64,000 nt of DNA from Novakomyces olei (lineage: Eukaryota; Ascomycota; Novakomycetes; Novakomycetales; Novakomycetaceae). Numbering within the stretch: the first letter of the stretch is position 1; every line of letters starts with the position of its first letter. Below, in pieces: positions 21,501 through 23,661 of the stretch. The stretch covers positions 496,001-560,000 of the forward strand of contig JADEYG010000003.1 of NCBI GenBank assembly GCA_016906335.1, written 5' to 3'. Under the pieces are notes generated by a model. It saw only the letters and a list, made by a program, of their open reading frames with translations. It was not told the DNA's origin and ran no database searches. The position numbers were made by a program, and so were the translations under genes.

Positions 21501-23661
21501 AAAAGACGGGTGGGCCGTGTTTCGGAAATTAGAACAGGCATTGTTTTTGGAACTGTGTACTCAGCAACCAGGAACCCGAGTTTTCGCTTGCGGAGGCGGA
21601 ATAGTCGAGAGCGAGACGGTAAAAACTCTGCTTAAAGACCGAAAACTATCGGAGTTTATTCAAGTCGTCCACATTCGGCGAAACGTTGACGAGACTCTGA
21701 AATACTTGGAACAGGATAAAACCCGGCCAGCTTATATTGCCGAGGCACCTATTGAAGTATGGCGGAGACGAAAGGAGCTCTTTGAACTGTGCAGTGATCA
21801 CGAATATTATAGCAGTGTTCCACCGACGTCCGACTCGGCGGGTCCGGCGTTAGCACGATTCCTGTCTCGGGCTTTCAATTCTCGGCTTTCAGGTCATGTG
21901 CCCCACCCTAAAGTCGCGGGTCCGTTTATGCTTTCGCTTCCGCTTCGGGATGTAAGGCCGATCCTCGGCGTTTTGCCGGAGGCAACTCTCGGCGTTAGTG
22001 TGCTCGAACTCCGAGCGGATTTACTCGTAGAGCAAGCATGTGGCGGCGACGTTAGTGTAGCAGCAGTAGCGGCGGACACGGCCGATACAGCCGGACACGG
22101 AGGTCGGGTTTTAGAGTACGTTGCCGAGCAAACGAGTCTTTTGCTCACTCACTCGGCGTTACCGGTAGTATTTTCCTTATTGCCGGCCTCCGCCGGCGGA
22201 AAGTTTCCCGATAACGCCGTTCACTTGGCTCGGACTTTACTACTCGGCGCTTGCCGTTGGGGTGTTGATTTTGTTGAAGTCCCGCAAGTTTGGCCGGAGG
22301 ATTTGCAGAGACAAGTCGGCCGCTATCATACGGGAATAATCTCGGCCTGTTATGACAATAATAGACTTTATAAAAATGAAACAGGAAAAGAAACTAATCA
22401 TAGCAATTTTGTATTCGACTGGACGGACTTGGATGATGCTGTATTGCCGGACAGAAAAATTTCGGCGTTAAAACTTGTTTCCACGGCGAATAAAGACAGT
22501 ATTAATATACAACGGAACCTGGCTAGCTCCGGATTCGCGGAGGAAGCTGGAAAGAGACTCCGAGTTCCAGTGATTGCCTTTAACGCCGGCCGCTCCGGTT
22601 TCTTATCGCAGGCACTGAACCATACTTGGACTCCGGTTACGCACGAGTCCGTTCGGGCTGCCGCTGGTTTGATTGCTCAACGCGACGGCAAAAGACCGGG
22701 TCTCGGAGATAATAACGACGGAGATATGGATCTTGCTACTATCGCGGAGCTGGAAGCTTTAGTAGCCCTCTGCGGAGGCCGAAAGGGCAAGGAGTATTAT
22801 CTGTTTGGAAGCCCGATCGGGCATTCGCGTTCTCCGGCGTTACACAATGCATTGTTTCGGCGTTATGGATTTACTGGCAGCAGCTACTCCCTTTTTGAAC
22901 GAAGTGACGTGGCTGCCTGTGAGCCTTTACTAAGGTCCGCAAGTTTTGGCGGAGCTTCAGTTACGATTCCTCATAAGAGATCAATTATGAAATTTGTCGA
23001 CGAGTTGTCCGAAGAAGCTCGGCGAATAGGAGCAGTTAATACTTTGGTGCCATTTGAAGCCCCCGAATCTGAGAGCGAAAACGGAACAAACTCCGGATTT
23101 CGGCGATTACTCAGGGGTGAAAATACCGATTGGCTCGGCGTTAAGCTAGCACTTGAGCCGTTTGTTCCTGCTGCTTCGGCGGGAGTTATTATTGGCGCCG
23201 GTGGAACCGCTAGAGCAATAATCGAAGCATTGTTGCGCCTTAGAATTGCACCTATTTATTTGGTGAACCGTACAGAGTCGGCGATAGAAGAACTGCAGGG
23301 TGCTTTCCCGGAAGCGCCCTTAATTCCGTTGACTACTTTGGAAGCCGTCAAGTCCGTCGCATCCTCCGTAGCTGTAGCTGTTTCGGCGATACCGGCATCT
23401 GGAAATCTAGATCGGAGTTTAGAGCAACGGGTCCACGCTTTACTTGACGGAGCCCTCAACTCGGCCGCTGTGTTCCTCGATATGGCCTATTCTGCTCCGG
23501 GCGAAAGTACTCCGCTCATGGAATATGCGGAAAAAGCTGGGTGGCCCACTGTTCTTCCTGGATTGCAGGTTCTTGTTTTACAGGGAATGCAGCAGTTCAA
23601 ACTGTGGACGGGAATTGAGCCTTCTGAAGCAGTTTCAATGCAGGCATGTTTGGGTGAATAG
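18557..23661 (+). CDS. ARO1: pentafunctional AROM polypeptide
   Basis: AROM carries out five consecutive steps from DAHP to EPSP in the cytosol. Exons 18557-19141 and 19333-23661 give 1637 residues. The order is 3-dehydroquinate synthase (about 1-385: [31 protein letters not shown]), EPSP synthase (about 400-840: [31 protein letters not shown]), shikimate kinase (about 868-1060: [15 protein letters not shown]), type I dehydroquinase (about 1065-1340) and shikimate dehydrogenase (about 1350-1637: [25 protein letters not shown]). Four domains keep their catalytic residues. The dehydroquinase domain keeps LELRADLL and the KLV lysine but appears to lack its catalytic His, two Arg and a Gln (see findings). 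The 191-base intron ends TTCACAG. Confidence 0.97.

What the first reader, a model, noticed from the sequence alone, without database searches (positions are those of the whole stretch)
21894..22790. AROM type I dehydroquinase domain has lost most active-site residues
Compared with the fungal AROM consensus as I remember it, the domain keeps its scaffold: [15 protein letters not shown], the Schiff-base lysine in KLV (residue about 1242) and TPV. Four active-site positions differ. The FTxR arginine is Leu (about 1145, codon 22180). The catalytic His before Asp (SHHD) is Tyr in SACYD (about 1202, codon 22351). The LSR arginine is Gln in LSQ (about 1288, codon 22609). The PGQ glutamine is Leu (about 1308, codon 22669). 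The other four AROM domains look intact and the frame is unbroken, so this is not simple gene decay. If real, 3-dehydroquinate to 3-dehydroshikimate must be done by another enzyme, for example a type II dehydroquinase, or the domain has a new role.
Basis: partly seen in the sequence, partly recalled or inferred. Interest (0 to 1): 0.75.

Follow-up and report, generated by a model that had tools for sequence, protein, structure and literature searches.

The report
Dead dehydroquinase domain with type-II backup
In this fungus one of the five enzyme units of the fused shikimate-pathway protein has very probably gone dead, and a separate, unrelated enzyme encoded elsewhere in the genome appears to do that step instead, as was shown before in Candida albicans but apparently arrived at here independently in a fungus related to fission yeast.

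Summary
The type I dehydroquinase domain of this fungal AROM protein has Leu for R82, Tyr for the catalytic His143, Gln for R213, Leu for Q236 and Ala for M205 (E. coli AroD numbering). The Schiff-base Lys170, E46 and R48 are kept. The other four domains keep their active-site motifs, and the frame is unbroken. By two markers (Rpb2, eL21) the genome lies nearest to Schizosaccharomyces pombe, whose AROM keeps the catalytic His. One AROM, no second type I dehydroquinase and no second quinate/shikimate dehydrogenase were found, but one well-conserved type II dehydroquinase on another contig was. So the type II enzyme most likely makes 3-dehydroshikimate for chorismate, and the AROM domain is a pseudoenzyme kept as scaffold. 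The same arrangement is established in C. albicans (Stogios 2022: dead Aro1 domain, type II Dqd1). Here lineage and lost residues differ and the domain is more eroded, so it looks like an independent, convergent case.

The parts
18557..19141 (+). AROM exon 1 (N-terminal part of the 3-dehydroquinate synthase domain)
   Evidence: phmmer of the spliced domain to 6hqv 460 bits and 1dqs 446 bits
19142..19332 (+). intron, 191 bp, phase 0 (aag|gtatga ... cag|act)
   Evidence: read from sequence; the splice gives the continuous DHQS alignment ..GMAEIIK|TAAIW..
19333..23661 (+). AROM exon 2: rest of DHQS, EPSPS, SK, type I DHQase, SDH, stop codon
   Evidence: Pfam order DHQS_C, EPSP_synthase, SKI, DHquinase_I, Shikimate_dh_N/Shikimate_DH/SDH_C
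21922..22764 (+). degenerate type I 3-dehydroquinase domain as aligned (Pfam PF01487 stretch 21946-22668, 54.2 bits, above the cut-off)
22180..22182 (+). TTG Leu at the R82 position (FTxR arginine)
22351..22353 (+). TAT Tyr at the H143 position (catalytic general acid/base)
22471..22473 (+). AAA Lys at the K170 position (Schiff-base lysine), retained
22585..22587 (+). GCC Ala at the M205 position
22609..22611 (+). CAG Gln at the R213 position (also Gln in C. albicans Aro1)
22669..22671 (+). TTG Leu at the Q236 position in the phmmer register (MAFFT chooses the Leu at 22702 instead)

Best explanation
The AROM type I dehydroquinase domain is catalytically dead or nearly so. It remains as a folded linker and dimer-contact module of the multienzyme. 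The conversion of 3-dehydroquinate to 3-dehydroshikimate has been handed to a free-standing type II dehydroquinase encoded at G000:C12:1209781-1210230 (- strand). 3-Dehydroquinate made by the AROM DHQS domain leaves, is dehydrated by the type II enzyme, and 3-dehydroshikimate returns to the AROM SDH domain. This is the arrangement established in C. albicans (Aro1/Dqd1), reached independently here in a relative of S. pombe. Shown by sequence: the lost residues, the conserved partner domains, the single AROM, one well-conserved type II enzyme, no quinate dehydrogenase-like gene found beyond AROM, and excess change in this domain but not in SDH, the only other domain tested. Inferred: loss of activity, the hand-over, the scaffold role, and independence from Candida.
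For: Residue mapping. The catalytic His matters: E. coli AroD H143Q is dead, and C. albicans Aro1 with Gln there is inactive (PMC9074039, passages). PF01487 has one match in 14.34 Mb, AROM itself. PF01220 has one strong match, a 149-aa ORF, with no substitution seen at the catalytic motifs (motif positions recalled; sequence). Of four nearby ORFs scanned, three are INO1, a TRM5/TYW2-like gene and eL21 and one has no family. PF08501 matches only the AROM SDH domain even at E <= 1, so no quinate dehydrogenase was found. The only PF01261 match is a deoxyribonuclease IV/AP endonuclease, so no dehydroshikimate dehydratase was found by that model. Chorismate synthase is present. DHQS, EPSPS, SK and SDH align to AROM structures through their active-site motifs. 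Rate excess in DHQase, not in SDH. Rpb2 (S. pombe 2330 bits v 2008 and 1919) and eL21 (S. pombe 266 v S. cerevisiae 229, C. albicans 228, Chaetomium 220) place the genome next to S. pombe, whose AROM keeps the His (PMC9074039, passage). CTG stands mostly at Leu (12 of 17, none at Ser), so this is not the CTG-Ser Candida clade.
Against: The Schiff-base lysine and E46/R48 are retained, which a fully unconstrained site need not do. The Pfam model still scores above its cut-off (54.2 v 22.2 bits). The rate excess is not needed for deadness: the dead C. albicans domain lacks it. Nothing was assayed. No close relatives could be fetched, so age and fixation of the loss are unknown. A six-frame search could miss a type I gene broken into very short exons. 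In C. albicans deletion of the domain had no growth effect, so a scaffold need is not proven there either (PMC9074039).
Confidence: 0.82

Rival explanations
1. The AROM domain still has weak or altered activity: the retained lysine forms the Schiff base and another residue replaces His143, and the type II enzyme merely adds capacity.
For: K170, E46 and R48 are retained; the scaffold motifs [14 protein letters not shown] and TPVTHE are kept.
Against: R82, R213, Q236 (substrate-binding, by recalled knowledge of AroD) and M205 are changed as well as His143. The change of His143 to Gln alone kills E. coli AroD (PMC9074039). Only 35 of 64 conserved columns are kept.
Confidence: 0.06
2. The domain has gained a new role, for example as a ligand-sensing or protein-interaction module, and was kept by selection for that role.
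For: Open frame through the whole domain, retained lysine and structural motifs; insertions relative to the AROM references after LRADLL (17 or more residues), before LKLV (12) and after STAN (4).
Against: No partner, ligand or conserved novel motif was found; the excess substitution fits relaxation as well. In C. albicans the dead domain is dispensable for growth (PMC9074039).
Confidence: 0.1
3. The type II enzyme is an ordinary quinate-catabolism enzyme (QutE/qa-2 type), and dehydroquinate dehydration for biosynthesis happens otherwise.
For: Fungal type II dehydroquinases are typically catabolic (PMC9074039 discussion).
Against: No second PF08501 match, the only PF01261 gene is an AP endonuclease, no QutR-like second PF01487 match, and the named nearby genes are housekeeping ones. 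Quinate permeases were not searched.
Confidence: 0.05
4. Artefact: assembly error or a hidden intron makes the domain look degenerate.
For: The gene has an intron further upstream, so introns do occur.
Against: The changed codons are spread over about 490 bp in one intact 1490-codon frame, and the flanking residues align on both sides of the changes.
Confidence: 0.02

Closest known systems
Candida albicans Aro1 (inactive type I DHQase domain) with type II Dqd1 (PMC9074039)
   Same: Pentafunctional AROM with four conserved domains, catalytic His lost in the DHQase domain, R213 position also Gln, a type II dehydroquinase elsewhere in the genome.
   Different: Different fungal lineage (nearest to S. 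pombe, CTG = Leu). His is Tyr, not Gln; the Schiff-base Lys is kept here but is Arg in C. albicans; R82, kept in C. albicans, is lost here. The domain is more eroded (35 v 47 of 64 conserved columns).
Fungal AROM (Schizosaccharomyces pombe 5swv, Chaetomium thermophilum 6hqv, 5swu)
   Same: Domain order and fold family, four conserved domains.
   Different: Those keep R82, H143, K170 and R213 in the dehydroquinase domain.
Type II 3-dehydroquinase (AroQ / QutE / Dqd1, PF01220)
   Same: The C12 gene is a full-length, motif-complete member.
   Different: No quinate cluster seen around it; most likely biosynthetic here.

Membership tests
Type I 3-dehydroquinase (PF01487), sequence family | Profile match above the curated cut-off | tested here: met
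   54.2 v 22.2 bits; 53.3 bits in the genome search
Type I 3-dehydroquinase, active enzyme | Catalytic His (H143) | tested here: not met
   Tyr, codon 22351
Type I 3-dehydroquinase, active enzyme | Schiff-base Lys (K170) | tested here: met
   Lys, codon 22471
Type I 3-dehydroquinase, active enzyme | Substrate-binding R82, R213, Q236 | tested here: not met
   Leu, Gln, Leu
Type I 3-dehydroquinase, active enzyme | Dehydroquinase activity | not testable with these tools
   needs an assay
Pentafunctional AROM | Order DHQS-EPSPS-SK-DHQase-SDH in one chain | tested here: met
Type II 3-dehydroquinase (C12 gene) | Profile match and complete catalytic motifs | tested here: met
   PF01220 200 bits, TIGR01088 190.5 v 169.85; motifs by eye, positions recalled
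Aro1/Dqd1-type arrangement (dead AROM DHQase with a type II stand-in) | Loss of a dyad residue in AROM together with a type II gene, no other type I gene | tested here: met
Aro1/Dqd1-type arrangement | Type II gene essential or AROM domain inactive in vitro | not testable with these tools
   needs experiments
Quinate-catabolic (QUT/qa) type II enzyme | Quinate dehydrogenase and dehydroshikimate dehydratase present, usually clustered | tested here: not met
   limited to Pfam models PF08501 and PF01261 (that these cover the quinate enzymes is recalled)

The most novel reading that the evidence does not exclude
The loss is an independent, convergent hand-over in the fission-yeast side of the Ascomycota, and the eroded barrel with its retained lysine has been recruited as a non-catalytic structural or dehydroquinate-sensing part of AROM.
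Probability: 0.12. Interest if true: 0.7.

Novelty: new member of a known kind. Interest (0 to 1): 0.5.

Why it matters
AROM is the textbook case of five enzymes fused for one pathway. A second lineage in which one of the five has apparently died while an unrelated enzyme takes over suggests that a spare type II dehydroquinase repeatedly frees the AROM domain from selection. It also means that the presence of an AROM gene cannot be taken as proof of type I dehydroquinase activity in a fungus, which bears on genome annotation and on which enzyme a dehydroquinase inhibitor would have to hit.

Tried and rejected
Considered and rejected: hidden intron or frameshift (unbroken frame, aligned flanks); a second type I gene; a second AROM (EPSPS has one match); CTG-Ser Candida clade membership; quinate catabolism.

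Led nowhere: the small-subunit rRNA search gave no answer, and the 5.8S rRNA search gave 0 matches with 39 of 495 candidates scored, so the lineage rests on two proteins. Rfam on the window gave 0 matches at gathering thresholds; ARAGORN found 0 tRNAs in the window. The scan of bacterial and archaeal genomes for type II relatives kept 80 of at least 593, at 52-70% identity, all with bacterial titles. C. albicans type II (3kip, by recall; 187 bits) and 4rc9 (Acinetobacter by recall; 190 bits) score alike, so vertical versus horizontal origin of the type II gene stays open; no tree was built. A half-length search meant to print the 3kip alignment ranked it sixth, so it was not printed. Paper searches (in some only the top rows of longer lists were shown) listed, among the rows shown, no report of a dead AROM dehydroquinase domain outside Candida; apart from passages of PMC9074039 and PMC6851490 I saw listings only.

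Full report
What is there. The window (C3:496001-560000 of a 14.34-Mb genome in 15 contigs) carries one AROM gene on the + strand at 18557-23661. Exon 1 is 18557-19141, a 191-bp intron follows (19142-19332), and exon 2 (19333-23661) lies inside a 1490-codon open frame. The spliced product has 1637 residues (the script prints 1638 with the stop). In the exon-2 frame Pfam finds, in order, DHQS_C, EPSP_synthase, SKI, DHquinase_I and the shikimate dehydrogenase domains.

The active site. E. coli AroD was fetched from MG1655 and aligned with the window domain and the printed AROM stretches of 5swu, 5swv, 6hqv and 7tbv. The window keeps E46, R48 and the Schiff-base K170. It has Leu for R82 (22180), Tyr for H143 (22351), Ala for M205 (22585) and Gln for R213 (22609). 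Q236 is Leu at 22669 in the phmmer register or Leu at 22702 in the MAFFT register. 5swu, 5swv and 6hqv keep R82, H143, K170 and R213; 7tbv (C. albicans) has Gln for H143, Arg for K170 and Gln for R213. Q236 is covered only by 5swu (Gln) among the fungal rows. Of the other three positions read, E86 is Ala (Gln in the references), and M203 and S232 are not conserved in the references. The window also has insertions relative to the AROM references: 17 or more residues after LRADLL, 12 before LKLV and 4 after STAN.

The other domains. Aligned to AROM structures, DHQS keeps the zinc histidines ([14 protein letters not shown]); EPSPS keeps [38 protein letters not shown] and DDHRVAM; SK keeps [20 protein letters not shown] and DKTRPAY; SDH keeps [24 protein letters not shown] and LQG. 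Which motif residues are catalytic is partly recalled. Identity to 6hqv per domain is 58.4% (DHQS), 59.6% (EPSPS), 43.9% (SK), 31.9% (DHQase) and 46.7% (SDH); the C. thermophilum-C. albicans values are 58.9, 68.5, 47.1, 45.2 and 44.2%. Window to S. pombe is 36.6% (DHQase) and 45.4% (SDH). These use only the stretches HMMER printed.

Relaxed constraint is specific to this domain among the two tested. Comparing window and S. pombe with an outgroup, changes unique to each are 31 v 13 (outgroup 6hqv, 168 columns, chi2 7.36) and 52 v 13 (outgroup 5swu, 174 columns, chi2 23.4) in DHQase, but 34 v 42 (264 columns, chi2 0.84) in SDH. C. albicans v S. pombe in DHQase gives 17 v 27 (166 columns, chi2 2.27), so a domain known to be dead need not show the excess. 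The count assumes that window and S. pombe are closer to each other than to the outgroup. EPSPS, SK and DHQS could not be tested this way because no S. pombe stretch for them was at hand. Of 64 columns identical in the three intact references the window keeps 35, C. albicans 47.

Who does the step. PF01487 matches once in the genome, in AROM. PF01220 matches once, E 1.6e-58, at C12:1209814-1210224 (-): a 149-aa ORF, 200 bits to PF01220 and above the TIGR01088 aroQ cut-off, with the NGPNLNLLGTREPxIYG, NAGAYTHTSVAIRDAL and EVHISNVHSREAFRHHS motifs complete (positions recalled). Of four nearby ORFs scanned, three are inositol-phosphate synthase, a TRM5/TYW2-like gene and eL21, and one has no Pfam family; other ORFs in the 30 kb read were not searched, though some look like VPS41 and glycogen synthase by eye. 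PF08501 matches only AROM, even at E <= 1, so I find no quinate dehydrogenase; the single PF01261 gene is a deoxyribonuclease IV-type AP endonuclease, so I find no dehydroshikimate dehydratase by that model. The searches for PF01487, PF08501 and PF01261 each found an expected housekeeping member, which serves as a positive control. EPSPS is single and chorismate synthase is present; the first pathway enzyme was not searched. So the pathway appears to run, step three has one intact candidate enzyme, and no catabolic partner of that enzyme was found.

Which fungus. Rpb2 scores 2330 bits against 3h0g (S. pombe; papers listed hold that code together with the species name), 2008 against 5x4z (Komagataella, recalled) and 1919 against S. 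cerevisiae. eL21 scores 266 against two S. pombe chains (8esq: listing; 9axt recalled), 229 S. cerevisiae, 228 C. albicans, 220 Chaetomium and 202 Neurospora (species of these chains recalled). CTG codons stand at Leu in 12 of 17 places against 6hqv (others V 2, E 1, F 1, gap 1; Ser 0). I conclude: nearest to the fission-yeast side of the Ascomycota (Taphrinomycotina), not the CTG-Ser clade. I do not know of basidiomycete or other Taphrinomycotina chains in those panels, so the placement is likely, not certain.

Prior knowledge. Stogios et al. 2022 (PMC9074039; abstract, outline and passages from sections 3, 4, 6, 7, 8, 10, 11, 14, 21, 22, 24, 29 and the references, some running into 9 and 23, seen; not the whole text) showed that the C. 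albicans Aro1 DHQase domain is inactive (His to Gln, no suitable lysine), that AroD H143Q is dead, that type II Dqd1 is active, with DQD1 reported essential, that five of seven Candida Aro1 proteins have lost the His and three of seven the Lys, that a type II gene is present wherever the dyad is mutated while C. glabrata and C. parapsilosis keep an active domain and lack it, and that deletion of the domain does not impair growth. They name H1182 of S. pombe AroM (5SWV) as the intact His. The present case is therefore a further member of that kind. By parsimony it is independent: S. pombe, C. thermophilum and 5swu (A. nidulans by recall) keep R82, H143, K170 and R213, C. glabrata and C. parapsilosis keep the dyad and activity (paper), and the sets of lost residues differ (of R82, H143, K170 and R213, only H143 and R213 are lost in both).

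Mechanism. Shown: sequence loss, conserved partners, presence of one conserved type II enzyme. Inferred: dead domain, hand-over, retained fold as linker and dimer contact (the DHQD domains are homodimeric at the centre of AROM in the Chaetomium structure, PMC6851490, passages). What I could not do: fetch relatives, predict the structure, or measure activity.

Noticed in passing
L018 5100-5885 (G000:C12:1275099-1275884): A decayed partial copy of the RPB2 gene: three short matches, two with a stop inside, by eye near-identical in places to the intact RPB2 (L014) but with deletions, on a different contig.
   Followed up: partly
L005 1774-2360 and 6083-6628 (G000:C12): Very long ATT-type simple repeats (seen as poly-Ile and poly-Leu frames) flank a 1275-aa ORF that looks VPS41-like by eye and carries a low-complexity TETKGATKGA-type insert.
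   Followed up: no
G000 whole assembly: No 5.8S rRNA match (39 of 495 candidates scored), so the rDNA may be missing from the assembly.
   Followed up: no
L020 and L023 1001-1429: Two actinobacterial MAG contigs encode type II dehydroquinases that match the fungal query over residues 1-143 at 62%; whether they are truly bacterial was not checked.
   Followed up: no
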